In this document: positions 5,393 to 61,700 of the stretch, one piece after another
How the letters are laid out: each line of letters begins with the position of its first letter
Position numbering within the stretch: the stretch's first letter is position 1
Assembly: GCA_017506865.1 (NCBI GenBank)
Contig: JAFCMP010000022.1
Span: forward strand, 124,001 to 188,000
Direction of reading: 5' to 3'
Length of the DNA stretch: 64,000 nucleotides
Source: Tribonema minus
Lineage: Eukaryota > Sar > Xanthophyceae > Tribonematales > Tribonemataceae
The notes under the pieces: generated by a model
What the model was told of the DNA's origin: nothing
What the model saw: the letters and a program-made list of their open reading frames with translations, nothing else
Databases searched by the model: none
Translations under genes and position numbers: made by a program

Positions 5393-5856
5393 CAGGGTGC
5401 AAACCTGGTACAGCTTGGCCATGAAGTCTTCCTTCTTTGCGCGCCGTCTGCTGTGATGATTTGATGATTCATGGTAGTGAAAATCACATGTAAAATTCAT
5501 GAATTCACGCACCTAGTATGGCTTGGCCATGAAGTCTTCTCGCGCGCCGTCTGCTAGTCTTTTCACGCACTATCTTCTTAATACTGCTTGGCCACATGTG
5601 ATGATCATACACGTGAAAAATCACACGGTCACATTCATGCATTCACGCACCTGGTACAGCTTGGCCATGAAGTCGGCCTCCTTCTCGCGCGCCGTCTGCT
5701 GGCGCTTGCCGCGCACAATCTTCTTCTTGACTCATACAAATGCACAATCACATGTGCAACTCATGAATTCACGCACCTGGTACAGCTTGGCCATGAAGTC
5801 CGCCTCCTTCTCGCGCGCCGTCTGCTGGCGCTTGCCGCGCACAATCTTCTTCTTGG
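5393..5856 (-). repeat. Four tandem copies of an exon tail plus donor
   Basis: The segment around AGCTTGGCCATGAAGTC lies in the real exon (5761-5856) and recurs at 5635-5729 (one clear mismatch over about 83 bases, spacing 126), 5496-5555 and 5393-5454. The first copy keeps the GTGCGTGAAT donor context; the farther two are shortened and diverged. Confidence 0.85.
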
Positions 5857-5938
5857 ACGTGCCGCGCTTGCGGAACTTGCGCATGTTGTCCTGGTTGCGC
5901 TTGGCCTTCTGCTTCTTGGCGTTGTTACGGCACGCCAT
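5777..5938 (-). CDS. Small Lys/Arg-rich protein, first exon
   Basis: An ATG at 5938 opens a 54-codon exon: MACRNNAKKQKAKRNQDN, then MRKFRKRGTSKKKIVRGK, then RQQTAREKEADFMAKLYQ, ending at a GTGCGT donor (5771-5776). It reads like a short, highly basic nuclear or nucleolar-type protein with a charged C-terminal helix (EKEADFMAKLYQ); I cannot name the family. If the donor were not used, translation would continue for about 14 codons to a stop. No convincing downstream exon was found; instead three decayed copies of this exon's tail and donor follow in the transcribed direction (5393-5730). The exon is nearly intact and its composition differs from the flanking DNA, so I think it is a real gene with its 3' end unresolved. 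Confidence 0.55.
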
Positions 5939-7930
5939 GGTCAGCGGCGACGCCGCCGCTGCGCGCGCGCGCGGAGCGTCACAGGTGAGCGTCACACGCG
6001 CGGCAACAGTTGCAAAGTGCGATTTGAACTGCGCGACTTGAAAGATAAAATGCAGTCTCGTCAACCTCGTGCTTCGCTGCGAGGCGTGTTTGTGAACGGG
6101 CCGTGCAGGAGCGTAACACGCACGGCCACAAAAAGCCGCGCACCCTTGCCGAATTCGGATTTCGATGAGCGGCCCGCGCATGGAAGGCACGCGACGCTGC
6201 GGCACGAAACTGATGGCAGCGGCGCCGGCGGCGCAGCGCCCCACCGCTTCATCGTGCCGCAACGCGATCAACTGAGTCTGAAAATTGTTTCAATCCAAGC
6301 CCCCCGAGTGAGACGCATGCGCACTCGGGTGGTCCGCTCATAACTGCCAGCGCCGTTTGTGCACAATGCAGCCAGGCGCCGCCACCGCAGCAGCACCCTG
6401 GAAGCGATTACCCTAACGCTAACCCTAGCCTTCGCCATAACTCTACCTCTGACCCTAGCCCTGACCCTAACCCTCAGCATACGGGTAACCAGGCGTCTGC
6501 ACACACACGTGCAGGAAGGTGGCTGCGGCGACAGCCTGCAACGTGATGAACCCCCCCTTCCCCCTGCCCCTGCACTCTGACAGACACGCGATGGCTTTAA
6601 TTCGGCGAGCTTCGCGCCGTGCAACTTCAAGTCCTTTTTGTTGGCTGCATTGCTGGGTTTGATGTGGAGGGGGGGGGGGGGGGAGGCTCACTGCACTTGT
6701 CGCACATGCGGCGGCATTCACAGTTGCGCGTGTGGAGCGCTGATAAGCACGACAAACGAGGCAACGCTCGCCCGCACGTGCTCTACGGAAACGGGCGCGC
6801 AGAGCAGGCCAGCTACTGGGGCTGGGGGGGGGGCTCACTGCACTTGTTGCAAGTGCGGTCGCGTTCACAGTAATGAGTTTGGAGCACTGATGAGCACGAC
6901 AATGGAGGCAATGGTCGCTTGCGCATGCTCTGAGCAAACGAAGGCGCAGAGCAGGGCAGCTACGTGAACAGTAAGGTCAGTTTCAGCGTGCGGCATTCCC
7001 TCGGCGGCAGCTGGGTGGTGCCGAGGATGCGCACGTGTTACCTTTGAAGTGGCATGTGACAGCAGGCAGCCCCTACTGTAGCTTTGCAACAACATGCGCT
7101 TTTGCGGCACAACGCAAGTGCTAGGAAGTTTGTAACAGACCTGAAACAATAGTGTGAGGGATATTGGGGGATGCATGCCGGAGGCATGGCAAGTACCGTT
7201 AGTATTTTCGGTTTCAAGTGCCTCTTCTGTGCGAAACTGCACATGTCCCATATGCGACTTTTCTTTAGCAGCAAGTGTAGCAGTCGCAGTGAAGACAGCT
7301 GCAGCGAACATTGTGCAGTCAGCAGCTGAATCACTGTCGCAGAACAGGTATCGTTCGGCCACCCAAGAGAGAACTAGACTTGCTGAGACACTTCAACCGA
7401 CTTGCAGGTGCCAACCGCCACCCCTGCAGAAGTAGCTGAACATCGTTCAGTTGCGGCTGGTTCGATGAATATTACCAGTAAGCTGCTGCAGCATGGAGCA
7501 CTCGCTTGCACACACGCTTGCGATAAGCTGCTCACGCAGACCGCATGCACCCAGTCGCTGGACCCTCGTAACAAATGGCCTGCCAACCTGCCGCTACGTG
7601 ATGATCGCAAAAGCGCGTGCTCTAATGACCGCCGCTTACGAAAACCCCTACACGCGGCACAGGACTACGATGGGCTCAAATTGCTGTCAAACTCACCCGT
7701 GGTGGCGGTGCCCTGGGACAGCGCAGCTCCCGTGAAGGCGCTTGTGAAGGCCGTGGCCATCGCGACCAGGCACAGCACCACGCTGACAAGCAGAAAGCAC
7801 CTCATGACTCCCCCTCTGCCTTTCCTCGCCTGCTGCAGAGCTCCTCTTAGCACTGTCGAAAAAGTATTACAGTTGAAGTTGATGCATGGTGAAATGAAAT
7901 CGTGGCCGCACACACCAAACACCAAACATC
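5939..7930. other. Non-coding upstream regions of the small basic gene and PWP1
   Basis: No exon is supported. It contains degenerate telomere-like CCCTAA units at about 6408-6480, a two-copy tandem duplication at 6684-6965 and short G runs. A 165-residue minus-strand frame at 6865-7362 lacks an ATG start and any recognisable domain and is not called. The last few hundred bases should hold the PWP1 promoter, but no specific element could be identified. Confidence 0.5.
6684..6965. repeat. Two-copy tandem duplication, about 149-base unit
   Basis: Both units begin GGCTCACTGCACTTGT and end at GCAGCTAC or CCAGCTAC (6684-6815 and 6832-6962), with roughly 75-80% identity by eye. The spacer includes a G run. 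No coding role was found. Confidence 0.75.
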
Positions 7931-10900
7931 ATGATCAGCGCCCTGGCATGGGTGCCCAAAGGGGCCAGCAAGGCACGGCCCGTGCGTTATGAGATGAGCG
8001 CCGCGGAATTGGAGGCCATACAGAGGGCGCAGCTCGCCGAGGATGAAGAGAGCCAGGACCCAATTCAGGTGGGGGACACTTGAACTTGTCATGCTCCTGC
8101 GCACCACCGTAGCTTGTGCGGATTCCGCGCAAACAGTAGTATTCCAGCTGCTCGTTAACGTGCTGATCGCCGCGTTGCAGCATGGCTATCGTTGCAGAAA
8201 CAAGCCTTCGGAAGTTGGCGAAGTTCAAATCGGAAGGCCTACATGAGTTACCTCCAGGAAGCAAAGCTATGTGTGTACTATCAGTAGCTCAATCAATTCA
8301 GTACTAATAATTTTCTTCTATGGCTCTGTCACACGCATAGCGCAGTGCGCAGGCCGGAAATGCTTGCTGCATCGCTTTGCCGAAGGCACGCTCTCCCTGC
8401 TCACGCCAGGGTCGAGCCAGCCGTACAATGCACACCTCACAAGCACCTGCCGCGGCCGGCATTTAGCGCAGGCACCTTTGATGATGCCTTTGCCACGGTG
8501 CTTTTTCTCCAAGTTCAACTTCCTTCTTCAAGGAGAGCCTGATGATCACCACTTGTGGCGCGTGCGCCCCGCTGCAGGCCGCCATCACAGCCGCGAGGGC
8601 CGCCGGCGCAGCAGCGGATCACGCGGCGAAGGAGAAGGCGGCTGCTGATGCAGGCCTGCCATCATTCCTGAAGATGGACGACTACGATGATGAAATCGAA
8701 ATGAGCTTGGGGGACGGGGCCGATGACGACGGGGAGGGGAGCGGCGATGACGATGGCGACGACGACTTGCAAGAAAACGGAGAAGAGGAGGTGAGACGCG
8801 GTGCTCCGCATTTCTGCTGATGTGGCACTGTCTTGTGCGATGGCCGCAGCGGTAGCAAAGCAACAGTGCAGAGGAAAGTGCCGTTCGCTGTGCGATGGCT
8901 GAAGCGGTACCAAAGCAACAGAGCTCAGGAGAGTGCTGAGCGCTGTTGATGACCTGCTTCTCCACTGCAGCAGTGACCGGCTTTGGTCACTCCAGGGCTG
9001 GATGTCCACACGCGGGGCCGCTCACACATGGCGGTCGCAGCAGCGCATCAGGCTGCAGCACCTGCCGCTTATGCCGCAGGCGAGGGTCCTGCCACCCTGC
9101 CACACGAATCGCGCACGATGCGCCGCCTGAGTCAGCAGCGCCCAGCAGCTTGTACAACGTGCTGCATGCCGCCAGCAGCAGCACCTAGGTCCAAGCATCA
9201 TTACTCAGAAGGCCACGCTGTCGCGCAGTCAGCTGCGTCATGGCCGCAGCACCGCCGCTCCCGCAGCGCGCACCAGCGGCCGCCGTTGGAGTGCCGCAGC
9301 CGCGCGCATGGCCAGCAATGCCACGCGCGACCACATGCAGTCGCGCGTAGACGCATGACCCACTGCTGCCACCGCACACAGCGCAGCACCGCAGCGGCAA
9401 CAACCGCAGTCATCCGCGCAGCACCGCAGCAGCAACAACCGCAGTCGTCCGCGCGGCACTCTCGCATCGCCGCGCACCCCCACACCCGCCCCGGCCCCCG
9501 CGCGCTCCGCACCGCACGTACTCACAGGCCGAGCCGCCAGACGACGACGAGGAGGAGGACGAGGACATGGACGACGGCGCCGCGGCGCGCGCGGGCATGT
9601 CGTTCGTCGAGCGCCCCGACATAGCGGATGACGATAGCGATGACGGCGACGGCGACGACGCCGAGGACCACGTGATCCAGCCGTCCGACGCGGTGCTGCT
9701 CGCGGCGGCGACGGAGGAGGACGAGCACGCCGTGCTGCTCGTCCACGTGTACGACGCGGCCGCGGGGTCGCTGTACGTCCACCACGACGTCACGCTGCCG
9801 GCGCTGCCGCTGTGCGTCGCATGGATGGACGTGGCGCCGCGGCGGCACGACGGCGGCAGCGCCGCGCCGCTCGCGTCGTACGCCGCCGTCGGCACCTTCG
9901 AGCCCGGCATCGAGATCTGGAACCTGGATGTGCTCGACCCGCTCGAGCCGAGCGCTGTGTTGGGGGGGTGGGCGCCGGGGACGGCGGGGGGGGCGGGGGC
10001 GGGGGGGAAGAAGAAGAAGAAGGGGGGGGCGGCGGCGGTGGTGGAGGGGAGTCACAGCGACGCGGTCATCGGGCTCAGCTGGAACGCGACGCACCGGCAG
10101 GTGCTGGCGAGCGCGGGCGCGGACGAGGTCGTCAAGGTGTGGGACGTCACCACGCAGGTGAGAGGGGAGAGGGAATATGAAACTTCTAAGTATGTACTTC
10201 AAAAGTAGTATGGACTTCAAGTATGAACTCCAAAATAGTTGTGGAATACTGCGAGTCGTGGGCGCGGACGAGGTCGTCAAGGTGTGGGACGTCACCACGC
10301 AGGTGAGCGGGGAGAGTGTGAAACCTCAAGTATGAAGTGTTGGTACACCACGAGTTCAATTGCGGACGAGGTTGTCAAGGTGTGGGACGTCATCATGCAG
10401 GTGAGCGGGGGGAGAGAGAGTATGAAAACTCAAGTATGAAGTTTTGGTACATAGCGCTTTACAAGAAACTCCTCAGGTATGGACTTCGGAATCATTGCGG
10501 AACACCCTGAGTCATGGGTGAAGACAGGGTTGTTCAAGGTGTGGGACATCACCACGCAGGTGAGGCAGAAGAGGGGAAAGTGATTGGTACTTCAAGTATG
10601 AAGCTGAGGGACATGCTTTGAGTCAGTAGCGTGGAACGTCAATCACCGCGGCAGACGATGACGGAGCGAGATGTCTAGCGGGGGGCGGCAGGCGCGCTGC
10701 TCGTCAAGCGCTGCTGCGCCTTGTAGCTGAGCATTGCTGCCGCACTCACCCGCCCGATGGACGCTACCAACCACCATTGCGCCAGATTTAGGAAGCTCGC
10801 TTCTGGATGTGCCGCTGCTGCGCGCTGCCCGCGTTGTTGAGTGCACGTCTCGATCCTATCACAAACTTCAATTGTGAAAGGACCTTTGAAGTTGAAGACA

Positions 10901-13900: not shown

Positions 13901-13917
13901 AGGGCAAGAGCGGCTGA
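7931..13917 (+). CDS. PWP1: PWP1, periodic tryptophan protein 1 (WD40, ribosome biogenesis)
   Basis: Exons 7931-8068, 8578-8790, 9528-10157, 11767-12018, 12813-13070 and 13615-13917 join in frame; every exon is a multiple of three, so all five introns are phase 0, giving 597 residues. The start MISALAWVPKGASKARP is diagnostic of PWP1. An acidic linker (residues ~95-140) precedes FVERPDI, then WD40 blades: LYVHHDVTLPALPLCVAW, EIWNLDVLDPLEPS, a Lys-rich loop near residue 278, LASAGADEVVKVWDV, VQSVAWH, ACWDVRK, LLATASEDKTVRLWD and VALWHTDDEP. The C-terminus is Ala/Ser-rich then strongly basic (KKHKKKKGKSG), typical of a nucleolar protein. The yeast and human homologues act in 60S subunit or rDNA chromatin function. 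The exon 3 tail and donor are repeated three more times in intron 3, and a run of 27 G follows the exon 4 donor. Confidence 0.93.
8835..8935 (+). repeat. 55-base tandem duplication in PWP1 intron 2
   Basis: Two adjacent units beginning GTGCGATGGC and ending GAGTGC or AAGTGC (about 8835-8880 and 8890-8935) agree at roughly 85% of positions. Confidence 0.75.
9381..9456 (+). repeat. Two-copy 39-base repeat in PWP1 intron 2
   Basis: Two adjacent units built on CAACAACCGCAGTC and CCGCGCAGCACCGCAG lie just upstream of the exon 3 acceptor (AG at 9526-9527). Confidence 0.75.
10115..10564 (+). repeat. Four copies of the PWP1 exon 3 tail and 5' splice site
   Basis: The real exon end (10115-10162, VKVWDVTTQ plus GTGAG) recurs at 10260-10307 (identical over 48 bases), 10361-10405 and 10518-10564 with increasing mismatches. 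All four keep CAGGTGAG. Spacers also match each other (gaaacttc/gtatgaa blocks), so the whole exon-tail plus intron-head unit was duplicated, with spacings of about 145, 98 and 159. Confidence 0.93.
12033..12059 (+). repeat. Run of 27 G just after a donor
   Basis: An uninterrupted G run starts 14 bases after the exon 4 donor of PWP1 (GT at 12019). It is capable of G-quadruplex formation in the pre-mRNA; any splicing role is inference. Confidence 0.85.
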
Positions 13918-14416
13918 CACGCCGCCGCTGCCATGTTTGCTGTACTTGATGAGGGTCTTGGTCTTCATGCAATGCCTTTTCGTCAATGCATGAGTATTGG
14001 TTGGACAAAAAAAAAGCAAGTGGCTTTTTGAGCCTGGTGCCAACACTTTTGACTCTATTCATGTTTTGAGTTAGATTTTGAGTTTCCGTGATCTGCTCCT
14101 TTGTGCCTCCAAGTTGTATCTATGTAGCAGTTTCTGAACAAGGTGTCACACTTGACTCTGGCACGACATCACTGTTATCAAGTTAGGTTGCTGTAATCCG
14201 TGCTTCTTTGGCACCCATGTGCAAGACTGTATTCAACCAGGTCGCATTTTGCAAGTCATCCAACATCACATCAGAGCTGCAGAAACAGCATTTGGACTTC
14301 GACTGGGGATGCGTTGCACATGTGCATGCATCTATGGTCCAGATTAGGCAGGTGCGGAATATGCGCATGCCTGCATATAAGTGACGGCTACCTAGCTAAG
14401 CCACCGGTTACCCCCA

Positions 14417-17400
14417 ATGACGGTTCAGGATCTTTCCTCGATCCGAACGCCGTTCTCAGGGGTCCGCGGGTCCGCTGCGACTGAGAGCTTGCTACATACA
14501 GCAGCCGGAATGGCGTTGTATGCCTGGGGATTCAATGGAGATGGCGAGGCGGGGCCGGTTACCCGTCTACACCGAGACGTCGAGTGCGTAAAGACACCAC
14601 GGCTCGTCTCTGATGTGCTGGAGGAAGCTTGCATTGTAGAAGCAGGCGACCAGCATACGCTGTGCCTTACGGAGAAGGGACAGGTGCGGCACGCTTGTTT
14701 GATTGCGCATGACGCTGCACGGTCGAATTCGACATGGCCCATCTGTTTTGCGTCAGCGAGGTTCAGAGCACATGCTACAGTGCGAACCGCCTTCCCGGTG
14801 CCTCCTGGATCCTGTCTTGCACCATCTGATCAGTGCAGCATATTGCATAATGCGACTAGCAAGGAAGTCCTTGATCCCTACGCCACCGTATGAAAGCCAG
14901 AAGCACGCCATGAGTCATCTTGCAAGCGAGAACGAGGTCACAATTCAGCGGCGTGTTTCACCTACTGTACCACCAAAAGCATGCGAGGTGCCTGAGGCCG
15001 CTGCCGAAAACGTGCACGCTGCGCAGGTCTTCGCGCTGGGGCGCGGCAAGGAGGGGCAGCTGGGGACGGCAGCCTGGCGCAGCTCCGAGGCCCCGCTGCC
15101 CGTCCTCGGCCTTGAAGACTGCGACGTCGTGCAGCTAGCAGCGGGCGCCTTCCACAGCGTCGCCGTCACCGCCTCGGGAGCGCTGTACCAGTGGGGCCTC
15201 GTGCACGACGATGATGACGACGCTGAAGACCCCGATGCGGCAGGCGCGGGCGGCGGCGGCGGCGTTCACGCGGTGGCGACGGGCATGCTCGTGGGCGTTC
15301 CCGTCCACGACGTCGCGCAGCGCTGGCACGAGGAGTCGCTGCGCATGGTGAGCGCGCGAGGTCGCCGTGCCGCTGCCACGAGACGGCTGTGAGGAGAAGC
15401 TCTGGCGCGCAATCAGAGCGCATGGGCGGCGCCGGGCACTGCCGTGCAAATGCCGCATCAGCACAGCTGCGAGGTGGACTTTGACACCACGCGCACGGTG
15501 CCAATCGCCGCTGGGCACCGCAGTGCAATTGCTGATTCAGCACGCGGCGCCGGCGGCACCACTCTTTGGCGGCGTGCGCAATGGCACTGTGCACGTTGCA
15601 AGTTCAGCCGCGCGCATTCCTGCTTTTCACGCACAAAGCGCCCGCCGCAGTTCATTGCTGCTCAACGCGCTGAAGTTGCTGTTACGTCGCACTCCCCCTC
15701 CCCTGCTTGAGAGGTGTGCAGCATGAGGTACTTGGGTTTCTTGCATTTCAGCCTTGACTTCATACACACCTGCCACAACTGTGACGTGCCGCCGCAGTGG
15801 CTGACGGCGACGGAGAGCGAGCAGGCGGACCCCGCTGCCGGCGGCGGCAGCGGCGGCGGCGCCGCTGCGAGCGAGCACGCCGTGGAGGGCATGTCGCGCA
15901 TGGGCGCGGCGGCAGCGCCGCGCGCCGTCGCGGCGCCGGCGCGTAGCCTGCGCGGCCTGCACGTCGCGGCCGCCGCCGCGGGCTACGGCTTCACGGCGGC
16001 GGTGACCACGGACGGGCGCCTCTTCATGTGCGGCTACAACGACCGCGGCCAGCTAGGTGGGTGGACGCGGTGGGTATGTTTGAACAGAGTGTCACCAAAA
16101 CATGGCTATAGCATGTCATGCAATGCTTCCAGTGTATGCATGCGTTGAGTACTGTACACAGAATCATGGGCGCAGGCTGTGACGGCGGCAGCGGCGGCGG
16201 CGGCGGCGCTGCCGCTGCAGTGAGTGAACACGCGAGCGCGTGTGCGGAAGCGATAGGGCGGGTCGTACGCGACTTCAAGACGTCATCGCCGCGACAGCCG
16301 CCATTGCGCGCATGCAACCAGCTCTCTTTCCCCGCCCGCGCCGGTCTTGCAGGTATCTACAATCATTGCTTTTTGAAGGACTCGTGTGCCTTCGAGTGCT
16401 GACCCGGTAATGCGTTGTCTGTCGCTGCCCGCAGGCCTCGGGCACCGCATGAACATGCCGTCTTTCCAGATGGTCAAGGCGCTGGAGCCTCACAGGGTGA
16501 TGCAGGTGGCGTGCGGGCAGCAGGTGGGTGAATGCCGTTTATCTTTACTGATGTTAGTGTCAACAAAATCTGTCCTCTTTACAACCACATGGTGTTCCGC
16601 CATCTCTTGTGCGCCTCGAAGTTGTCAACACCAACGGCGATCCTATGGTGTTCCGGCATCTCCTGTGCATCGTGAAGTCGGGGATTGCGGCAGGATTCCA
16701 CCTAGCCCCTTCTTCAACTGTATGTTGAGCTTCACATGAGAATGTGATGTTGGCTTGCGGGAGTCCTCAGCTGCTTTGTGGACATGGCTGATGCAGGTGA
16801 TTGCGTTGTGCGCACACGCGCATGCCATACCCCACGTGTATCTGTTGTGAGCATCTCAAAAAGATACGCCATTCGAGTCCCGCGACGTGACTTGAGCGCA
16901 AGCGCGCATCAGCAGCTCCCTCAGAAGCTACCGCTGCAGGTGGCGTGCGGGCAGCAGGGGCGCGGCTGCACGCTTGCGCACCCGCCCGCCGTGCAGGCGC
17001 CCAATCGTGTAATGTTCTTGTCGCGAGAACACAGCGGTATCATACATACCTACCTCACCTACGTACCCTGAAGCGTGACACGACCCGCGGCAGCGCTCAC
17101 CTGCTGGCAGCGCCCCCCGCCGCTGGCGCAAGCATCCTCGCACGATGTCGGTCGCCGCGCAGCTCGGTGGGCTCCTTGGCGGCTTCAGCAATGAACGATG
17201 ATTTCCGTTACTTTGTGATCACAGATCGCTTTCAAGAGCTCTTTGACGTCAAGGCGCACGACACGTGAATTGCGCGCGCCCTCCGCGGCGCGCGCGCCGC
17301 TGCTGCTGTCGCCAGTTCGTGCTGCTCCCCAGTCCTAAGCCTAGCCCCTAACCTAACCCTACTTCTGGCTCGTACAACTGTGTGACCCATCTTGTCATGA

Positions 17401-29285: not shown

Positions 29286-29990
29286 ATGAAGTCTTCCACA
29301 CAAAGACGCTATATGCCGCGACGGACATTGACCCTTCTTCTGGTGGCGTTGCTACTCAGCAACGGGGTTTTGGGGTTCGTGCGCCATGGACGAAGCAGTC
29401 CACGGTCCAGCGGCAGGTGCAGTTGAGATTGAACTGCTATTTAGCAATGACACCTCCGGCACCATGATGCGCGTTTCGTGACAGCTTGCCCGGACGCTAG
29501 GGGCTTTTTCAGGAGCTTCGGCCAAGTGGCGTGATCCGATATAGATCGAGCCCCCATGTCGATGACGAGCTCTCCATGGGTCTGCTCGGCGGAGGCACAC
29601 TATTCAAACGCACCCTAGTAGGTGACGTCCGACATCTTGACCTCATTGCCGACGTGCTGCACTCATTGCCAAACACAGGATAAATGAGGTTTTCTTGCCT
29701 CTTCAACATGCATGATGTTACGTACAGACGCCATGCTTGGCAACGTGCATCAGCGCGCTGAGCATGAACGAAACAGGCTTGTTTGAAGCCATGATCCACG
29801 CCAATGACGCCACTTGCCCTTGCACAAACAAAGCGTTACTGCTGTGACAACGCCGTCACTGCACACGGCGGCTCGCGTGCGCAGCGCTCCACCAGCGAGG
29901 ACCAGTGACCGAGCGCGCACTGCGCTGGCGCACGTGTGGCGCTCTCCCTCAAACGCCGAAAAGCGCGACGGCAGCAGCGGCAGCAGCAGC

Positions 29991-30042
<52 letters not shown>

Positions 30043-31309: not shown

Positions 31310-31341
<32 letters not shown>

Positions 31342-50500: not shown

Positions 50501-53500
50501 CAAGGACCTTGACCTCGTGTGTGATCTCCACCACCAGTGCGGTAATATTCTCCTAGCAAACTATATCTACATACGTGGGTACCTTGAACTCGTGCCTAAT
50601 CTCCACGCTTGGCAAGTGAACATACCTCTTATTTATGCCGTCACCTGCTCAACCCGAATACCGCTTCACCTTCAGTAACAAATGTGAACCCGGATGTATG
50701 TATGTGTGAACCCGGATGGATGTATATGTTACTTCAAGTCCATACATACATACTTCAAAGCACAACGTACACGAATGAGTACCCTGAGCTCGTGTGTGAT
50801 CTCCACCACCAGCGTGGCGATCTTTTATTGCAGAGTATATGGACATGAATGGTTACCTCGAACTCCTTGCGCTCGTGCGTCATCTCCACGCTTGGCACGT
50901 GAAAATACACCTTCTTTCAGAAGTAAATGTGAATACAGCTACTAATGGTATACTTCTCTATACTTCAAGTACGCACGTACGTACATATACGAAATGAGTA
51001 CCTTGAGCTCATGCGTGATCTCCACCATCAGAGCGGAGATCTCCTCTTGCAGAGTATATGTACATGAACATGCCTGGAACTTGTGCGCCATCTCCACGAT
51101 TGGCACGTGAAAAGAACCCTTCTTCCAAAGATGAAAGTGAAGACAACTAAAAATAATCTATATAATTCAAGTACATACATACATACATACATATACGAAT
51201 GAGTACCTTGAGCTCATGCGTGATCTCCACCACCAGCGCGGAGATCTCCTCGAGCGTCTCCGCCTTGTTGGCGTCCACAGCTGCTGTCTGCTCGGACTTG
51301 GCCACCAGCTCCGCGTGCGCGCGGCGGTACCCTGACACGCCCTGCGCAGTTGAGTGAATCATGGGGCAGCGCTCAGAGTATAATTGTCTGTTTTTTTAAA
51401 CCTTAACGAATTCCATGGACTGGCCACCAGCTCTGCGTGCGCGCGGCGGTAGCCCGACACCCCCTGCGCGGTTGAACAAAACATGCAGTCAGCGCTCAGA
51501 TTTTGGGTACTTTGTATCCTAACCCTAACCCTATGCCTTTGACTTGGCCACCAGCTCCGCATGCGCGCGGCGGTAGCCCGATACCCCCTGCGCGGTTGAA
51601 CAAAAGATGTAGTCAGCACTCAGATTATGGTTGCGTTTGGGTAGTCCTAACCCTAGGTAACTCCATTCAGTTAAAACATTGATTCGGAAATCCCCCTCCT
51701 GGGCCTCAGACAAGTGCGCCGCAGTAGCTCAACGCCCCCTGCGTGGTTGAGCGAATGGTGCAGTCAGCGCTCAGCATGAAAGGCGAGGTCAAAATCAACC
51801 ATAACCCTAACCCTAATCCTAACCCGAACCCTAACCTTGACCCTGATCCTAACTCCAGCCCGAACCCTAATGATGGACTTGGCTATGAACTCCGCATTTG
51901 CGCAGCGGCAGCCCGACACCCTTTGTGCGGTTGAGCACACACCAGCGTTGAGGGTGGGTGAATGATTCTTACGCAAGCCTGACCCTAATCCTGTCCCCAA
52001 GGAAACCCTGCGCGGGCTGGGATTGGGCATCAACGCCGCACTGTCCTCACCCTTACCCTGAGCTTCATGCGCTTTGTGACTTCAGCTGCCCCTCAACCTA
52101 AGTCCAACCCTACTCCCTCGTTGCGTCGCCCGTGCGCCACAGCACTCACGCCCGCATGCAGCCTAACCCTAACCCTGACCACATTGCACAACGCTGCCCT
52201 TACCAGGGCTAAGCTGCTGCAGCAGCTCCTCGCCTGACCCCAACACCAAGCATGCTGCAGCTCAGGGCTTGGGTTAGTGCTAGGGTTAGGGTTTGACTGA
52301 CCTTGTCTCCTACAGCGGCTCCTCGCGTCACCGTAACCCTAAGCACTCAGCAGCTTGGGGTTGGAGTTCCTCACCCGAACCTTGTGCTGGGCACAGTTCA
52401 ACTCAGGGTTAGTGTTAGGATTAGGGTTAGGTGTTGGACTGACCTTGTCCGCCTCTAGCTTCTGCAGCAGCTCCCAGTTCAACTCGTCGCCCCAGCCGAG
52501 CCCCCCTCCGCACACCGCAGCTCAGGGCTAGGTTATCCTAGCCCAGTTCTCGAGCGGAGCACGGTTCAACTCAGGACTAGGATAAGGAGGGCAAAACTGA
52601 CCTTGTCCGCCTCGAGCTTCTGCAGCAGCTCCTCGAGTCGGTCGTCGCGGCTGCGCAGGACCTGCTCTGTGCGCGCCAGGACAACGCTCTCCGCGCGCAG
52701 CTCTGCAAGCTCTGCCTGCCAATGTGCACGCAGGAGGGGCATTTTCATTTGGTTAGGGCAAGGACTAGGACTAGGCGCAAGTACCCTAGGTTCGAGCGCA
52801 CAGGGGGGCATTCTTGGTTAGTTAGGATTAGCCACGCGCTACACCAGGGACAGCCAAAGCGTGCCGCGTTTTGCAGCGCTGGTAGCGGACAAGCAAACGA
52901 TGTGGGTCAGCGCTCACCCCGCAAACTTCAACGCACCCAGCGACGCGCTGTAGGGCCTAGTCCTGCAACTGTTACCCTAGTCCCCTCATCCCAACCCCAA
53001 CGTCACTCCCCTGTGCATCACGCCTCCCCGCGCGTGTGTGCCGCCGTCCTTCATCTGCACGTCGCCAGAGAGGCAGGGGGTGCCCCCGACCCTCGCCCCA
53101 GCAACGCGGCTGGCGCGCCGTGCGCATGCAAACCCAAGCCTAACCCTAATCCTAACCCCGACCAACCGCACAAACTGGCACTGCGCACGCATGACGGAAA
53201 CCGCAGACTGCTGCTGCCCACCGCAGCCAATGACGGCGAGCTAATGAACTTGAGCGTGCGGTTCTGCCTCCCCCGTTGATCACGAGCGCATCTGCCCACA
53301 CACGCACATTCACCTCGCGGCTCTTGCATGTCTGCGCCTACCCTGACCCCTAACCCTAGCCCTAACCCCAAACCCTAACCGTGCTCACACGCGCACCTTG
53401 AGGCGCTTGTACGTCTGCGTCTTCTCGCGCAGCCGCGCGCCGTACGCCTTGAACTCCTCGCGCGTCATGAAGCCGCCGCCGCCGCCGCCGCTGCCGCCGC

Positions 53501-53673
53501 CGCCACCGCCGCTGCGCGCCCCCGCAGAGCTGGCCGCTGCCTCCGCGTCCTCCAGCTGGCGCGCGAGCTTGGCGCGCTCCGCCGCCAGCAGCTCGAACGC
53601 GCTCTCCTTCTCCTCCAGCTTCTGCGCCGCGAGCGCCGCCTGCCGGGGGGGGGGGCGCAGCAGCAGCAGCAGC

Positions 53674-53706
<33 letters not shown>

Positions 53707-56700
53707 GCTCAGAGAAAGCAGAGCGGCGGGTGGCGGGTTCTGGCGGCTACGGTCGTGGCGCCGGCACGATGATGGTGCCGGCTGCGCGAGCCGCTTGAGG
53801 GGGGGCGCTGCACGCTCGCTTGCTGTTGGGGCACGCCATGCGGATGTTGCGGTGCGGAGGGCTTAGCGCCGCCTGCACGGTGTGACACCAGCCCTGCCCC
53901 TGCCCTCGACAACCAACACGTCACGTGTGACATTGCGCCACTGGTGATGACGCGCTCCTGCGCGATGCACACATCCGCAGCTTGCGCCGCCGGCGCCGCA
54001 GCCGCCGCGTGCGAGGCGCGCGCCGCTTGTGGTTGTTAGGGCTAGGGTTTAGCCTTCCCGTACGACTGCACCTTTGCCAGCCCCGCCTCGTGCGTGACAC
54101 AGTATCACCGCAGTCCCCCAGCCCTACCCTAACCCTACCCCTACCCCCCCCCCCCCCCTCTCTGGTGCAATCATTACAGCGAGCTTCAAGGTTCGGCGCG
54201 GCGCCAGCGCTGCAATGGCGCCGCAAACCAGCACATCACAAACCCTCAGCAGCACAAGCAACGACAAAAGCCGACCCGAACCCTCCCCCCCCCACCCCCC
54301 CCCCCGCGCACCTGCTGCCGGAACATGCTCAGGTTGGCGTCGCCACGCGCGGTGTGCGCGTCGTCCGCGGCGGCGCGCGCCGCCGCCGCCTCTGCCGCCA
54401 GCGCCGCCGCGAGCGCGCGCAGCTCGGCAACGTCCTCGCGCGAGCGCGCGGGCTCCGCGGCGTCGCGCTCCGCGCGCGCCAGCTCGCGCCGCAGCGCCGC
54501 CGCCTCCGGCGCCGCCGCCGCTGCGCGCGCTGCCAGCGCCCCGACCTGTGGGGAAGGCGTCACCAGTGGTGAGAGATAACCACGCTGGCAGTGTGCGGTG
54601 GCGGTGAGCTGAGAGCATCGGCGGGTGCCGCGGCGGCGGTGCGTAGTGGTGCGGCAGGGGGGGAGGGGTTTGCAAGCCCCCCCTTCCACAGCGCTTCTCA
54701 AAGCCAAGTGCTGATCACAGGCAACTCATGCGGCGCACGGCGGTGCTCATGTGGGCAGCCACGGGCACGGGGGGCAGCGCTTCGGCTGCGAAGGTTGGTT
54801 CTCGTGGTGCTTCCGATGACATGGCAGATCGTGACCCTGACGCGGGCGTGACCTCCTGCGCAGATGCACTGCATTGACGCCGCCGTCAGCGCGCTGCAGT
54901 CGAGGGACTAGCGCCAGGGTTGGAGTCCGACAAGGGTAGCAAGGGCGCCCTAACCCCAGCCCTAACCCTCACAGTAATCTCAAACCCTAACCCTAACCCT
55001 CAGAGAGGGGCTCACAATGCCGCTGCATTAGCGATAGGGTTAGCGTTAGGGTTGGGGTTAGAGAGGCGGCTCATCTCGCCTACCTACATTAGGGACTAGG
55101 GATAGCGATAGGGTACGGGTTAGAGAGGGGGGCTCACCTCGCCGCGCAGCTGCGCCAGCACGGCGTCCGCGGAGCGCGCGCTCGCGGACATGGCGCGCAG
55201 CGTCTGCAGCCGCCGCTGCCCCTCCGCGAGGTGCTGGTCGGCCTGTGCAGTAGCGGCGGTGGCAGAACATAACCAGGGTCAGATTGAGGCTGAAAAGGTA
55301 CGGGTTGGGAGGTTGAGGGGGCGACGGCCACGGATGATGCAGGCAGGTGTCGTGGTCAGCAGAGCTGCAGCAGCTGGCAGAGACTGCGCGCGCGAACGCG
55401 AGGGCTGCGAGAAAAAGTGCTGTGGTGGATTGCCTCACGCGCGCCGGCTGCACAGCCCGCATGCGCGCGCCCACTTGCTTTCACGCAGCCAGGCGCGCTC
55501 CGGCAGCTGCTGCAGCATGCAGCACGCAGGCGCTGCGCCGACGACGCTTCCATGAGCGCACTGCGTAGCAGCGCTCACCCAATCTGACTTTGCCACCAGC
55601 AGCGCGGCGGCCCCCTCCCCCCCCCCCCCCCCCGGTCGCCTGCCCCCCTGAGAGCTCCTGCACTCAGCCCATGCGTGCCTGCGTCGTATTTGCATGGGCC
55701 GAAAGCGCGGCACCCAGCGCAACCCCAATCCCCAATCGCTGCAGGCTTCGGAGGCGTGCGCTGCGGCGCGCGGCCCTCGGTGCCCTAGCCCCTACTGCCC
55801 TGCTCTGCCCATGTGGCACACACGCATGGCACGTACACGTCCCCTAGCTGCGGCACGCGCGACATAATCGCCTCTCGCCAGAAACAGCGTCACCAGCGCA
55901 TCCGCACTATATCAGCTGCAGCCCGTGTGCTGTTGGAGCGCACGCCGCGTGCCTCCGCGCCCGCTGGCGCTGTACGCCCGCCTGTCCGCCGCAGCAGCGG
56001 CGGCGGCGGCGGCGCATGCACACACAGCGGCGGCGGCAGCGCCCCACAGAGTGCTGCCGCGACGCGCGCCGCCGTGCACGACCGACAGCGCAAACGCGAT
56101 GCGCACGCCCCACTGTCTGAGCCGCACGCGCGCACGCTGCTGCCGCGTCGGCACCGGCGGCGGCGGCGCTCACCTGCTGCAGCAACGCGCGCTGCTCGCG
56201 CGCGCGCTCCGCGAGGCGCGCCTCCTCCTCCTGCGCGCCGCGCAGGCGCCCCGTCACCGCCAGCATCTCCTCGAAGCCGGGCTCGCCGTCGGCGGCGCGG
56301 CGCGCGCGCGCAATCTTTTCCCCCAGCTGGCGCCTCTCCTCCTCCAGCTGCGCGACCTCCGCGCGCAGCTCTGTGGGGCGCAGGTCCGTGCGCCGCAGTG
56401 CGTCGACCGCCTTGTGCGTGACCTTGAAGTCGGCCTGCGGTGGCGGCGGCACAGGGCGGCGGCGGCAGCGGCGGCTTGTGTGCATGGGTGTGTGGCGATA
56501 TACACATGGCGATGCTGAGGCTTGCGCGACGCACAGGCAGATAAAGACTGCACGACAAGACACAAAGCTGCAGGTTGGGCGCGTGGCCTGCATGTCCTGC
56601 AGCGCGGCGTCCTGCGCAAATCGCTGCGCAGCGCTGCAGCTGCCGTCGGAGAGACTCCCTCTGGCAGGGTAGAGTCATAGCGTCACGCGCGCGCTCACCT

Positions 56701-57803
56701 GCAGGTCGGCGTACGCGGCCTGCATGTCCTGCAGCGCGGCGTCCTGCATGAAGTCCGCGGGGACGTCGACGGGCATGAGGAAGCGCGCCAGGTACGCGCG
56801 CTTCTGCAGCTGCGGCAGCCGCTGCAGCGCCCAGTGCAGCACGGGGTACACGGCGCCCCTGCTGCCGCTGCCGAGGCCCGCCGCGAGGTAGTCCGCCTGG
56901 TCCTGCCCGACTTCAAACTTGAGCATCTGCGCGTGCGTGCAAGAGGTGTGGGGGGGGGGCAGATGGCGCGTGTGCTCAAGCAGCCACTGGTGTGAGATGG
57001 TGTTGACTTTGCTGTGACGGAACTGGTGCGCATGGCTGCTGCTGCTGCTGCTGCTGCCGCTGCCCCCGCTGCCGCTGTTGATGCTGCTGCTGCTGCTGCA
57101 ACATGCACTGCCTGGAGTGAAAAATTGCTGTGATGTGCCTCTGAATGGCACACGTACAAACTGAGGGCCTGCACATGGCGACTCTGAGTGCATCTCCGTG
57201 CACCTGCGGTTGCTATTAAAAAAGCCCGTTGTCAGCATGCCAGCACTGCTGCTGCAAGGGTTTTGGCAGCCATGAGATTGCAGATACTTTTACCCAGTGA
57301 AGCAGCACGGTCCCACGGGGAGTGCTCCGCTGCACACCCGCTGCAACGGCAACAGCTTTTCTCTCGACAGCTGGCTTCAGCATGCTAACTTTGCCGGTGA
57401 AAATCATCTTGCGTATATGGCTGCGTGAAGGCAGCCAGCAAAATTATCAAGGCTACTGCAATGCCCATTTCGAAGACATTGCATCAGCTCTAGCATTCCA
57501 GCAATCTCTTGCTTCGAGCGGTGGTTGAGGTGCTTCATCAAAGACATCGACTCAGCGAAAACTGGTGTATCGTGAAGAAGCTAACTTGCGCACCTGTAAG
57601 AAAGCCATGATCCTCTGCGCCCGCACATCCTCTGGCTCGTCCCTTGGTGGCGGAGGGGCATGCTGTGGATCGATAGTGGCGAACACATCGTTGAGGGTCT
57701 GCAGCAGCTCCGCTGGGCTTTGCTCATCGAAGTCCACGAGTCTGAGATCCTTCTTGAATGGAGGCTCATTGAGCCGCTCCACTATGTAGGATATTTCAGC
57801 CAT
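47577..57803 (-). CDS. IFT81: Intraflagellar transport protein 81
   Basis: Twelve exons: 57803-57594, 56926-56699, 56434-56174, 55242-55138, 54545-54312, 53639-53397, 52715-52602, 51341-51207, 50111-50004, 49477-49418, 48492-48337, 47816-47577. They give 697 residues (human 676, Chlamydomonas about 680). Every exon length is a multiple of three, so all 11 introns are phase 0. The N-terminal calponin-homology fold that binds tubulin is clear: AEISYIVERLNEPPFKKDL, then VYPVLHWALQRLPQLQKRAY and LARFLMPVDVPADFMQD. The rest is coiled coil, collinear with animal IFT81: LSMFRQQ, TREEFKAYGARLREKTQTYK, LEADKGVSGYRRAHAELV, VGLEVERSQLEQECDAL, LQEESRFHF. Insertions are a Gly-rich loop in exon 6 and another near the C-terminus. 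IFT81 pairs with IFT74 in IFT-B and carries tubulin into the growing cilium. Exon 9 uses a GC donor. Exons 2, 7, 8 and 11 are echoed in neighbouring introns. Confidence 0.94.
48457..48930 (-). repeat. Three acceptor-side copies of IFT81 exon 11 start
   Basis: The exon 11 start and upstream intron (plus-strand GAAGTGGAAGCGGCTCTCC at 48457) recurs from 48659 and from 48829, spacings about 202 and 170. All keep the CTGCGCGGCG acceptor complement. The spacer blocks AGCGCTC, ACGCAGCGCCG and CAATGTGCTCTG also repeat. Confidence 0.92.
49362..49402. repeat. Interstitial telomeric repeat, CCCTAA orientation
   Basis: Four consecutive CCCTAA-type units (best block about 49378-49401), preceded by degenerate ones, lie in IFT81 intron 10, directly beside the exon 10 donor. 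Confidence 0.85.
49998..50003 (-). promoter_or_regulatory. GC-AG 5' splice site of IFT81 exon 9
   Basis: Exon 9 ends GACAAG and the intron begins GCAAGT on the minus strand. It otherwise fits the U1 consensus (AAG|GCAAGT), as GC donors usually do. The next exon joins in phase 0, collinear with known IFT81. Confidence 0.8.
50503..51250 (-). repeat. Higher-order donor-side echoes of IFT81 exon 8
   Basis: Plus-strand copies of GAGTACCTTGAGCTCATGCG (the exon tail and GTACTC donor) begin at 51201 (real), 50996 (2 mismatches in 50), 50777 and about 50503. Between them lie more diverged sub-copies at 51075, 50857 and 50581 that share ATCTCCACGCTTGGCA-like sequence. The unit is about 205-220 bases with an A and a B sub-copy. 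Confidence 0.9.
51295..51951 (-). repeat. Five acceptor-side copies of IFT81 exon 8 start
   Basis: Copies begin at 51295 (real), 51418, 51541, about 51703 and 51876. Each runs from GACTTGGCCACCAGCTC-like sequence through CCCTGCGCAGTTGA (the acceptor complement) to CAGCGCTCAGA. The first two spacings are both 123. CCCTAA-type units occupy the spacers after the second copy. Confidence 0.93.
51797..51872. repeat. Degenerate interstitial telomeric repeat
   Basis: About ten CCCTAA-like hexamers with substitutions lie between the fourth and fifth exon 8 echoes of IFT81. Confidence 0.8.
52197..52640 (-). repeat. Donor-side echoes of IFT81 exon 7 with telomeric spacers
   Basis: The exon 7 tail and GTCAGT donor (52596-52640) recurs at 52438-52475 (about one mismatch in 35), 52296-52330 and, faintly, 52197-52235. 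TTAGGG-like units directly abut the donor of the second and third copies. Confidence 0.88.
54953..55065. repeat. Facing CCCTAA and TTAGGG telomeric patches
   Basis: CCCTAA-oriented units (54953-55003) are followed within 30 bases by TTAGGG-oriented units (55028-55062), inside IFT81 intron 4 close to the exon 4 donor. Confidence 0.8.
56587..56749 (-). repeat. 30-base perfect copy of an IFT81 exon 2 segment
   Basis: The plus-strand block starting GCCTGCATGTCCTGCAGCGC at 56720-56749 (exon 2) is repeated perfectly at 56587-56616 in the following intron. Confidence 0.85.
57030..57102. repeat. (CTG)n microsatellite in IFT81 intron 1
   Basis: An imperfect CTG/CCG run lies between exons 1 and 2. 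Confidence 0.8.
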
Positions 57804-58722
57804 GGCCGGCACTCAGCAGCAGCAGCTCTCCAGCAAACTCGCAGCACTGCCAGTTGAAAAGTGGATCTCACGAGGCAACTAGAGCCCGGCTTTCGGTGTG
57901 GCCTACACAGGATGTCTGCGAAGGCCTCCTGCGCATGGCAATCGGTTGTACCACATCTTTGTTGTCGAGACAGGGCACCGGAATGCGGAGGTCTTCCTCA
58001 ACACCAGCTTGCAACCTAACGGCAGGCGCCTGAGGGGCAGAGTCCGAGTCACAAGCTTGAGTCAGTTCTAAAGATCGGAGGCTGCCTATTGTATGATGCT
58101 GAGTGCTAGCAGCTTGCAGGAAAAATGTTCATGGGCTGGTGTCTGTGCCAAACTCAGTACATCACTGCAAGAAAAGCTACACTTTGTCCAAAAAAAGGCA
58201 CCTTCTTTTAAAAAAGGTTCACATGGCTTCATCATATGCTCTCAGTAGTGCATTCGATTTGGCGCTTGTAGGCAGGCACAGTCCACACAAGTCACATCAC
58301 AGGGTTGGCTGAGCGGTTGTCACACAGAGTATATTACCAACGAACGCACAGAACAAAGGCAGAGTCTGAAAGCGTGGCCATGCACACGCTGATGCTGCCT
58401 GCATCAGGTAGCCAACTCCAGTACGACGAAGATTCTCAACAGCACTACATCAGAAACAAGCTGTCGCAGACTGCTGCCGACACAATGGCGTGTCAGCCAC
58501 GCCACGCAGCGCCATTCGGCGCTAGCAGCTGACATGAGAGATTTCTCATGCGCGCATGCGCAGCCGTCCGCGCGCGCACGCTGCGCTCCAGCGGTGCTGG
58601 CCGAGCGGCGCTGTGCCATTCTTCAGCTGGGCAGGCGGACACACGACCTTCACAGCGTCGCAGCGCATTGCGCTTGCAACCCTGGTAACGGCGAGATCCG
58701 TGCGCAGCGCCTAGCCCTAGCC
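57804..58722. other. Intergenic region upstream of IFT81
   Basis: It holds the IFT81 promoter and the 3' UTR of the GPS-protein gene. No exon or defined element is seen. Confidence 0.45.
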
Positions 58723-61700
58723 CTAGTTGGCCGCCAGCGCGTCCAGCAGCACGTTGGAACCCTGCTCGACGAAGTCGCCGAGCACTGCGGTGACCATGAG
58801 CACGAGCGGCTGCTGAATGATGGCCTCCACGAGCATCGCGAGGAAGCACGTCAGCAGCCAGCCGCGCCCCGTGCGCGCGTCGAACACGACGCCGTACACG
58901 AGGTTCACGTACAGCAGGCACGCGATCGCGAGCGCCGTGCACGCGTGCGCCAGGTAGAGCAGCGCGGCGCGGTGCGGCGCGCACGCGCGCAGCCACGCCG
59001 CGAACTCCGCGTTGCGGATGGCCGTTGTGCGCGCGCGCCGCGCCCTGCATCGTCACAACGGCAGCAGCACCAGGGGCACGAACCGGGTTCTGCGTCAGTA
59101 GGGGGTTTGCGGTAGCAGTGCCGCCGTGACCGGTCACATGCGTGGCTGTGCGAGCTTCCAGGTGCTTAGACAGCGACGCATACATCTTTGCCAATACGTA
59201 AACGTGCCATGGCGTCACAAGCAGGGCATGGCGTCACAAGCAGGGCATGGTTGAGCAACGGCGCTGAACACATCACGGCAATCACTGGCAATGTCAGTGC
59301 GTGAGGGTGTGGTGATATTTGTTCCTGGACTACTGAGCATGCAGCGCTTCGTGGGTTTGAATGTGTCAGCGTCGGCGGCGTCAAGCGTGTCCGCTGATAC
59401 AAAGCGCAGCAGATGGACACGCTGCGCTGGCCGGCTCGTTTACGGTGGTTCAGTGTTGCTTCAATTGGCTGTGCACAGCCAGCATTTGCGATGATCAATC
59501 TGAGCTCAAGGATGGATGAACCATGCGCCAGGCCCTGGATACAAGCGCAGTTGCATGCACAAAGCCTCAGCGCGGCAAAGAGACAAGGAGAAGGTGCTGC
59601 TTTGCATGGGGTACTGTGGACACTCAACGGTCACGGAAGGTCGTGCCGTTTATTTGGTGGCCATGTGTGCATGCTGTATGCTGTTGCTGTTCTGCTGTCT
59701 GCCCAACTGCGGCAGCTTTTTTGCATGCACGCACAAGGGCACAGTGCAGGCACGCCATTGTCAACATGACCTGGATAAAATTTGTGTACAGCCGCCAGAG
59801 CACAACAAGGCCAACAAAAGCTCAGCGTCCTGTGAGAAGTGCACTACAAAAGCATGCACAGCCAATGCAGAGCATCCTGGTTTGCCGGTTAGACTAGGTG
59901 AATGTCCATTGCAACTTCAACAGCCCTCAAGCCTTGGCGTGTACGATACAACGAAGCTGCAACGATACGAAGCTTAATGCACAAGGATGCTGCGCGTCAT
60001 GCCAGCGCGCTCACCTGAAAGCGCACTGCATCTTCGTGACGGCAGCATGCTCTGCTGGTGTGGGATTTGCCCATCTTAACCGCACCTGCGCAGCCACAAG
60101 GCAGGATCAACAGAAAAACATGATGACGATGGGGGCCCGTGATGCCTTGCAGTGCTCAGCAGCTTGGTGAAGTGCACGCTTTGACAAAGTGTGATGGTAA
60201 CTGCGGATTGGTTTGCTGTCACAACTATTTCACGCGCACATGGCAGCGTCAAAAAGAGGTTCCCCTTCTGCCTGCGGTACACAACGTGTACACGCGTTGC
60301 GTCATGATGTGGACCGTGCTAATGATGCGGAATGATGCGGAATGATGCATAGCATGCCCTGCGATCACCATGTGCCGCAGCGCTCTGCACGTCAGCGTGT
60401 GCTGAATGATCCAGGGAGCAGCAGGTGCGCACCCCATGCCAGGCTGGACTGTAAGCATCTTGGCCCCTGATGCATAGGGTTGCCGGTGCTACACCTTGCA
60501 ACATGTCATCATTTTAATGTGTATCATGCGCATCACAGAATTCTTGCGACGAGGGTCCCTGATGCATAGGCGCGCCAGTGCTGCACCTCACATATCAATG
60601 AACTTCGAAGCACTACGTTTGTGTGCCCAAGGTGCTTCAGACACTTGTGCGCACTTCAGTTCATGAATGACCACTTCAAGTACTCGAACTTCACATGCAC
60701 ATTTCAGCAAGTACTTCGCAAGTATACCACTCTTCAACAACAGAATGCCACAAATCGATATATCATATTATGGTTCAATCAATTACGTTATGTTTCTCGG
60801 TTCTACTTGCTTTGATTTCTTATTTACTATGGCCGTGTATGCGCGCGCGCACCTTGAGTATCTGCAGCCTGTCCAGCTGCGCCTGGCACTTGAGCAGCAG
60901 GCGCACCAGCCACACGGACGCCATCGCGAGCAGCGCCAGCACGACCGCGAACGCCGCAAGCGCCAGCGACACCGCCGCATAGAAGAGGCCCGCCAGCCCC
61001 AGCCCCGTCGCCGCGATGCACTGCAGCAGCAGGTACCGCTGCATGTGGGTGGGGTGGCGCAGGCGCAGCGCGACGAGGCCGTAGCCGGCCAGCACGGAGA
61101 CCATCGCGCCGAACGACGCCGTCATGTTGGCGTGCAGGCCGCCGGCGTGCCGCGTGTAGATGACGACTGCGCGACAGCAGCAGCAGACATGCGGCGAACC
61201 AACGCTGTGAGTTGAGGGGGTGGTAAGGCACTCGGGCAGGGGGAGCGAGTTGGGGGGGGGGGGAAGGGGGGGATGTTGGCGTGCAGGCCACCAGTGTGCC
61301 TTGTGTAGATGACGACTGCGCGGCAGACGAGCGGCGAGCGGCAGCGTCGCGATCCACGCTGTGAGTCGAGGGGACGGTGAGGCACTCGGCGGGGGGGGGT
61401 CGTGGTGGGGGGCAGGAAAGACTTGTGCTGCACGCAGCGCCGAAGCGCAACGGTCAGGCGCAGCGCATGAGCTGCATGAGAGTAAGCTTGAGTGATGACA
61501 TGCAGCGGTAACGACCGCCGGAGGCAAGGCAAGATGGACAAGCAGCACGCTGTACGTAACCGCTTCCATTACAGTAAGCGATGCGGCGACTTGAAGTGCG
61601 AGAGCTGCTGTGCTTGCGTGCAGAGTCTACTACGCGTGGCATTGCGCAGGTAGTACGTAAGAGTATCAGAGCTCGAACACTCGTGCCTCGAGCGCGCCTC

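What the first reader, a model, noticed from the sequence alone, without database searches (positions are those of the whole stretch)
5393..61405. Splice-junction echoes: exon ends and their splice sites tandemly copied into introns, in six genes
At about fifteen exon/intron borders a block made of the last or first ~40-90 exon bases, the splice site and ~50-150 intron bases is repeated two to five times into the intron. Donor-side blocks spread downstream and acceptor-side blocks upstream, and identity falls with distance from the real exon, from near-perfect to barely recognisable. It occurs on both strands and in unrelated genes (small basic protein, PWP1, RCC1-BTB, sugar dehydrogenase/oxidase fusion, IFT81, GPS protein), so it is a genome-level process, not one gene's domain repeat. 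Tandem duplication of AG|GT-containing segments is a known proposal for intron birth; ongoing growth of existing introns by repeated junction duplication, with a decay gradient, seems different and may explain the long introns. The copies could also act as decoy or alternative splice sites.
Basis: partly seen in the sequence, partly recalled or inferred. Interest (0 to 1): 0.88.

Follow-up and report, generated by a model that had tools for sequence, protein, structure and literature searches.

The report
Introns lengthened by copied exon ends
In this stretch of an unidentified eukaryote's genome, short blocks spanning the border between a gene's coding and non-coding parts have been copied head-to-tail into the neighbouring non-coding part, which is longer as a result while the protein stays the same; if general, this would be a simple way for introns to grow.

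Summary
The window comes from an unnamed eukaryote (GC 62%, exon GC3 95%). I curated exons of seven genes and tested 85 splice junctions. At 12 of 85, a junction probe is copied into the adjoining intron far above chance; self-BLAST adds two. That gives 14 junctions, 11 donor and 3 acceptor, in the six genes named; one is uncertain. Copies are head-to-tail and lie on the expected side. Spacings have median 145 nt (range 96-275). Where homologues allow a check (IFT81, multicopper oxidase), the outermost splice site is the one used.

The simplest cause is recurrent local tandem duplication of non-coding DNA. Where a unit spans a splice site, only events that leave the outermost site in use should survive, so copies end up inside the intron. 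The 11 echo introns have twice the median length of the other 31, and repeats account for the excess. Preference for junctions is moderately supported (p about 0.015). The exon part of the nearest copy looks fresher than its intron part, a hint of exon-to-intron gene conversion (p about 0.02, carried by a minority of arrays). Decoy splicing and intron birth by AGGT duplication are not supported. No sister genome was available. New variant of a known kind.

The parts
5403..5855 (-). A1: small basic protein, donor of exon 5777-5958 echoed 3 times downstream (junctions at 5776, 5650, 5512, 5404); exon part about 79 nt
10107..10614 (+).
16501..16958 (+). RCC1-BTB donor 16523: isolated exact 24-nt copy of the exon tail at 16935-16958 (uncertain; could belong to an undetected RCC1 exon)
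21962..22316 (+). A9: RCC1-BTB, tail of exon 21799-22054 echoed with internal deletions
23099..23310 (+). A11: RCC1-BTB donor echoed once, 155 nt on (donor 23126 as GC donor by reading phase; 23130 as GT donor was used in the tests)
25269..25684 (+). A12: RCC1-BTB donor 25333 echoed twice (25482, 25607); exon part about 65 nt
38163..38600 (-). A13: multicopper-oxidase fusion gene, donor 38556 echoed 3 times (38459, 38325, 38186)
48456..48890 (-). A14: IFT81 acceptor 48492 echoed twice upstream (48694, 48864)
49301..49432 (-). IFT81 donor of exon 49418-49477: short echo (about 15 exon + 10 intron nt) 91 nt into the intron, behind a telomere-like filler
50495..51251 (-). A17: IFT81 donor 51207 echoed 3 times (51001, 50782, 50507) with shorter half-copies between
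51294..51937 (-). A18: IFT81 acceptor 51341 echoed 4 times upstream (51463, 51587, 51738, 51920)
52258..52632 (-). A19: IFT81 donor 52602 echoed twice (52443, 52301); same intron as A18
56568..56747 (-). A20: IFT81 donor 56699, exon tail of about 49 nt copied once; splice site not kept
61124..61412 (-). A21: membrane-protein gene acceptor 61166 echoed once upstream (61315)
17394..18683 (+). intron-only arrays A5 (17394-17782) and A6 (17920-18035 with 18571-18683) flanking RCC1-BTB exon 17788-17916
50118..50475 (-). intron-only arrays A15 and A16 upstream of IFT81 acceptor 50111
20079..20386 (+). intron-only array A7
21633..21796 (+). intron-only array A8, C-rich, next to acceptor 21799
22763..22976 (+). 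intron-only array A10
8834..8946 (+). intron-only array A3
6671..6963 (.). array A2, 147-nt unit, outside curated introns

Best explanation
Recurrent local tandem duplication of segments of about 100-275 nt (median spacing 145) hits the non-coding DNA of these genes. When the segment straddles a splice site, the event is tolerated only if splicing keeps using the outermost site, so the extra copy of exon end, splice site and intron becomes intron. Because the reverse outcome, a longer exon, would break the protein, the process works as a one-way ratchet that lengthens introns (inferred). Repeated rounds give arrays of 2-5 copies counting the real one. Purifying selection holds the real exon still while intron copies decay, which gives much of the gradient. 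In some arrays (most clearly A1, A4, A12, with A13 and A17 similar) the exon part of the nearest copy also seems to have been re-copied from the exon, most likely by short-tract gene conversion (inferred, moderate support).
For: Head-to-tail only: 38 direct against 0 inverted local repeats at >=50 bits. Junction copies at 12 of 85 probes, on the correct side of the junction only. Arrays of the same kind in introns without exon sequence (8) and outside curated introns (A2), so a general duplication process exists. Outermost sites used: IFT81 spliced there aligns to Chlamydomonas IFT81 (8bd7) without gaps at three exon joins that involve five echo junctions, EADK|GVSG, THELK|SRK and DALQ|TEAL; the oxidase aligns to a laccase without a gap across PIMRMQ|ACGV. 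Echo introns: median 1,026 nt (11) against 526 nt (31 others), p=0.0015, and 578 nt after removing repeat-covered bases. Real junction against nearest copy: exon side 0.898 identical, intron side 0.679, exon side higher in 10 of 11 arrays with one tie, p=0.002. Nearest copy closer to the exon than the second copy is, in exon parts but not in intron parts, 8 arrays, p=0.023.
Against: Exon parts are short (31-93 nt, 12 arrays) compared with random breakpoints (KS p=0.007), and junction arrays are commoner than a uniform model predicts (p=0.015 with exons masked); uniform duplication explains neither. The conversion signal is not general: only 3 of 9 arrays (A1, A4, A12) fall below what exon constraint alone allows at p<0.05, A11, A14, A18, A19 and A21 do not, and the pooled value is p=0.024 on uncorrected distances. 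Over all 21 pairs of intronic copies the exon-derived side is also somewhat more alike (0.754 against 0.666, p=0.02), which simple neutral decay does not predict. Long introns also offer more target, so the length association could be partly exposure.
Confidence: 0.7

Rival explanations
1. The duplication machinery is targeted to splice junctions, for example by breaks or nicks linked to nucleosomes positioned on exons or to co-transcriptional RNA-DNA hybrids, giving units of nucleosome-like length anchored about 30-90 nt inside the exon.
For: 12 of 20 arrays overlap a junction against 25.6% expected, p=0.001; 9 of 17 with exons masked, p=0.015; exon parts cluster at 31-93 nt; 25 spacings with median 145, IQR 126-159; 11 of 43 donors against 3 of 42 acceptors, p=0.038 (by the uniform probe alone it is 9 and 3, not tested).
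Against: Eight intron-only arrays and one outside curated introns show copying away from junctions. Classing an array as junction-type is easier because the real exon is conserved, even when detection masks exons. Counts are small and from one window. The link to nucleosome length is recalled, not tested.
Confidence: 0.25
2. The copies are kept because they work as decoy or alternative splice sites, or as extra U1-binding sites.
For: The splice dinucleotide is kept in 22 of 25 copies (my count from the list; copies were picked by junction likeness, so this is biased). Exon-derived parts are somewhat more alike than intron parts over all 21 intronic pairs (p=0.02).
Against: Using the nearest copy shifts the frame in 9 of 11 arrays, and 8 of 11 inserts have no stop-free frame. 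Spliced protein alignments use the outer site. Adjacent intronic copies show no clear difference between exon-derived and intron-derived parts (0.752 against 0.704, 14 pairs, p=0.18).
Confidence: 0.07
3. [quoted passage not shown]
For: Units contain exon sequence and AG|GT borders.
Against: That model puts the upstream exon's tail next to the acceptor; here the best donor-tail copies start 71-411 nt from the donor and not at the acceptor, and intron 51342-52601 carries different echoes at its two ends.
Confidence: 0.03
4. Assembly or collapse artefact.
For: None beyond the repetitiveness itself.
Against: Copies diverge from the real junction by 0-40% on the exon side and 20-51% on the intron side, with indels; the curated exons give open frames and match homologues.
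Confidence: 0.02

Closest known systems
Tandem duplication as the main source of short insertions (flies and primates, PMC2374710; passages read)
   Same: Head-to-tail local copying as a general insertion process
   Different: That work concerns short insertions; here spacings are 96-275 nt, with up to four copies at one place, spanning splice sites
[quoted passage not shown] passages of PMC4974935 read)
   Same: Tandem duplication involving exon sequence and splice signals
   Different: There a new intron (in potato also new exon sequence) arises; here existing introns grow and no new intron is seen
Introner elements (recalled)
   Same: Many intron-altering events in one genome
   Different: Introners are dispersed copies of one family; in this window no direct repeat of 50 bits or more joins places over 1.5 kb apart, and the 4 inverted ones look C- or GC-rich and simple
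Tandem exon duplication giving alternative exons (recalled)
   Same: Exon sequence copied next to itself
   Different: Copies carry only one of the exon's splice sites, and 9 of 11 nearest copies would shift the frame

Membership tests
Local tandem duplication | Direct orientation and short distance | tested here: met
   38 direct, 0 inverted within 1.5 kb at >=50 bits
Local tandem duplication | Copies diverge, more so farther from the source | tested here: met
   Nearest copy more similar than the second in 7 of 8 arrays; A14 is the exception
Local tandem duplication | Breakpoints independent of gene structure | tested here: inconclusive
   12 of 20 against 25.6%; 9 of 17 with exons masked, p=0.015
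Intron birth by AGGT duplication | Intron bounded by copies of one exonic segment, the upstream tail abutting the acceptor | tested here: not met
   Best donor-tail copies start 71-411 nt from the donor; different echoes at the two ends of intron 51342-52601
Introner elements | One sequence family dispersed in many introns | tested here: not met
   0 direct and 4 inverted repeats >=50 bits beyond 1.5 kb, the latter C- or GC-rich; only this window was tested
Tandem exon duplication | Copy has both splice sites and keeps the frame | tested here: not met
   9 of 11 nearest copies shift the frame; copies read carry one of the two splice sites
Gene conversion between exon and copy | High-identity tract with discordant flanks | tested here: inconclusive
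   Discordance p=0.023 over 8 arrays; pooled test against constraint p=0.024 over 9 arrays, individually below 0.05 in A1, A4 and A12 only
All | Presence or absence in sister genomes | not testable with these tools
   No genome held; three viral-contig scans found no relative

The most novel reading that the evidence does not exclude
In this lineage, splice junctions are themselves sites of recurrent duplication, and the selected exon acts as a permanent template that both seeds and refreshes intronic copies. Introns therefore grow outward from their own splice sites by a one-way ratchet, which sets intron length in the genome.
Probability: 0.25. Interest if true: 0.8.

Novelty: new variant of a known kind. 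Interest (0 to 1): 0.58.

Why it matters
Here the source of added intron sequence can be read directly, in 11 of 42 introns, and it accounts for their excess length. If general, it gives a simple neutral ratchet for intron growth that needs no transposon, a supply of ready-made cryptic splice sites, and a built-in clock, because copy divergence could date each step. It also warns that gene finders can mistake such copies for exons: my own simple gene finder did so at 25423-25482, 5651-5695 and 38157-38246.

Tried and rejected
Three viral-contig scans for relatives of window proteins found none. The organism was not identified; IFT81 is clearly related to, but not close to, Chlamydomonas IFT81. 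A simple Viterbi gene finder over-predicted small exons and merged genes, so exons were curated by hand from frames, splice sites and homology.

Telomere-like blocks were considered as drivers: by my reading, 6 of 31 lie inside the BLAST arrays (7 with the short echo at 49301-49432), not far from the roughly 15% of non-exonic DNA that the arrays span (hand arithmetic, no test), so this was dropped. Matches at three exons 130-190 nt from junctions were set aside; two were inspected and look low-complexity. A weak match (IFT81 donor 56174, score 30) was not counted. Array A2 and the simple-repeat pair 29969/31245 were left out of the 9-of-17 count because they lie outside curated introns.

The A11 donor was placed at 23130; reading phase later favoured exon 23053-23126 with a GC donor, and those tests were not rerun. 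Exon-part lengths were read from BLAST ends and junctions, and A9's (93 nt) was estimated by eye. One search used the exon set before the last IFT81 correction. The small basic protein has one curated exon; 1,200 nt downstream were taken as its intron. Spacings, and one search cover 11 of the 14 echo junctions (not A9, 16523 or 49418).

Literature: ten searches gave listings with starts of abstracts (one search gave none); by those, none listed describes arrays of junction copies. Passages were read in PMC4974935 and PMC2374710. Introners and tandem alternative exons are recalled.
Full report
WHAT THE WINDOW IS. No whole genome is held for it. It has 62.2% GC and 95% GC at third codon positions over 1,263 seed codons. 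Its genes have spliceosomal introns, so it is a eukaryote; IFT81 suggests one with cilia. Rfam gave no match at gathering thresholds. The names 'GPS' and 'sugar dehydrogenase' did not reach Pfam significance.

THE COPIES ARE REAL. Self-comparison finds 38 local direct repeats at 50 bits or more and no local inverted ones; three shuffles give none even at 40 bits. In one search, 40-nt windows at exon ends match the adjoining intron at 9 of 42 donors and 3 of 41 acceptors. The rate falls to zero at 80 nt or more from the junction, apart from matches at three exons, two of which were inspected and look low-complexity. With a probe of 25 exon and 15 intron bases, 12 of 85 junctions score 40 or more; the best of 5,648 cross-gene comparisons is 37, and none of 429 internal-exon windows reaches 34. 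Two further junctions are seen by BLAST and the exon-window scan only, giving 14: 11 of 43 donors and 3 of 42 acceptors. One of these (donor 16523) is uncertain.

ANATOMY. A unit is 31-93 nt of exon end, the splice site and the neighbouring intron (12 arrays; lengths read from BLAST ends, the 93 by eye). The 25 spacings measured in 11 arrays have median 145 and range 96-275. Copies lie on the adjoining side: 8 of 42 and 3 of 42 on the proper side, against 0 of 33 and 0 of 33 on the other. Intron 51342-52601 of IFT81 has donor echoes at its start and acceptor echoes at its end, and 68% of it is local repeat; the next intron, 50112-51206, is 82% repeat.

WHICH SITE IS USED. IFT81 spliced at the outermost sites aligns to Chlamydomonas IFT81 with no gap at three exon joins that involve five echo junctions. 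The oxidase does the same against a laccase. The WD40 protein aligns across its junction to another WD40 protein with a one-residue gap. Using the nearest copy instead would shift the frame in 9 of 11 arrays, and 8 of 11 inserts have no stop-free frame. The copies are therefore most likely intronic passengers in the normal transcript; no RNA data were available to check this.

EFFECT ON INTRON LENGTH. Among 42 introns, the 11 echo introns have median length 1,026 nt and the other 31 have 526 nt (p=0.0015). Without repeat-covered bases the echo introns have median 578 nt. Local repeats make up 16.7% of intron sequence. Exposure works in the same direction, since a longer intron is a bigger target, but the near-equality after subtraction favours growth by copying.

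IS IT JUNCTION-SPECIFIC? Placing units at random in the genic span, and excluding those inside an exon or containing one, gives junction overlap in 25.6%; 12 of 20 arrays were observed, p=0.001. This is inflated because a conserved exon keeps old copies visible. Masking all exons before detection leaves 9 junction arrays of 17 in introns, p=0.015; which arrays count as junction-type still rests on the exon. Exon parts are also shorter than random (KS p=0.007). So there is moderate support for some preference, against a clear background of purely intronic arrays.

DECAY AND REFRESHING. Between the real junction and its nearest copy, the first 42 exon-side bases are 89.8% identical and the first 42 intron-side bases 67.9%, with the exon side higher in 10 of 11 arrays and one tie (p=0.002). 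Between adjacent intronic copies the two sides do not differ clearly (75.2% against 70.4%, 14 pairs, p=0.18); over all 21 intronic pairs they do (75.4% against 66.6%, p=0.02). Identity is highest next to the junction on both sides, but the alignments were anchored there, so this proves little. Selection on the real exon can explain up to about a two-fold difference in divergence. Pooled over 9 arrays the observed difference exceeds that at p=0.024; A1, A4 and A12 do so individually, and A11, A14, A17, A18, A19 and A21 do not (A13 and A20 were left out because the intron part of their unit is short). In exon parts the nearest copy groups with the real exon, while in intron parts it does not (8 arrays, p=0.023). 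Short-tract conversion from exon to nearest copy fits this in a minority of arrays.

MECHANISM. Shown: local head-to-tail copies, at junctions and elsewhere in introns, decaying with distance in most arrays tested, in longer introns, with the outermost site used where homologues allow a check. Inferred: tandem duplication as the event; survival only when the outermost site stays in use, which makes a one-way ratchet; conversion from the exon. Not known: what starts the duplications, whether they still occur, and how widespread they are in this genome.

COMPARISON. Tandem duplication as the dominant kind of short insertion is known (PMC2374710, passages), and tandem duplication that creates introns is known (PMC4974935, passages). 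In what I searched (open-access papers only, judged from listings) I found no report of arrays of junction copies lengthening existing introns across several genes. I therefore call it a new variant of a known kind.

Noticed in passing
window, 31 places such as 51795-51846, 49349-49404, 54947-55004, 52402-52434: Degenerate telomere-like (TTAGGG/CCCTAA) blocks of 18 nt or more: 31 blocks, none in curated exons (chance 0.0008), while four other hexamers gave 0-2 blocks each. Some lie inside echo units.
   Followed up: partly
50004 (-) and 23126 (+): Probable GC splice donors (AAG|GCAAGT in IFT81; AAG|GCGAGT in RCC1-BTB), by reading frame and homology.
   Followed up: partly
33640-40844 (-): Fusion gene: a large N-terminal part with only a weak DUF7133 match, then multicopper oxidase, then CBM6.
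   Followed up: partly
16935-16958 (+): Isolated exact 24-nt copy of an RCC1-BTB exon tail; it may belong to an undetected RCC1 exon, since the reading phase suggests that an exon is missing between 16523 and 17788.
   Followed up: partly
e.g. 50112-50140 (-), 21770-21798 (+): Very long C runs in front of some acceptors.
   Followed up: no
25423-25482 (+): A nearly perfect exon-tail copy that an automatic gene finder calls as an exon: a hazard for annotation of this genome.
   Followed up: no
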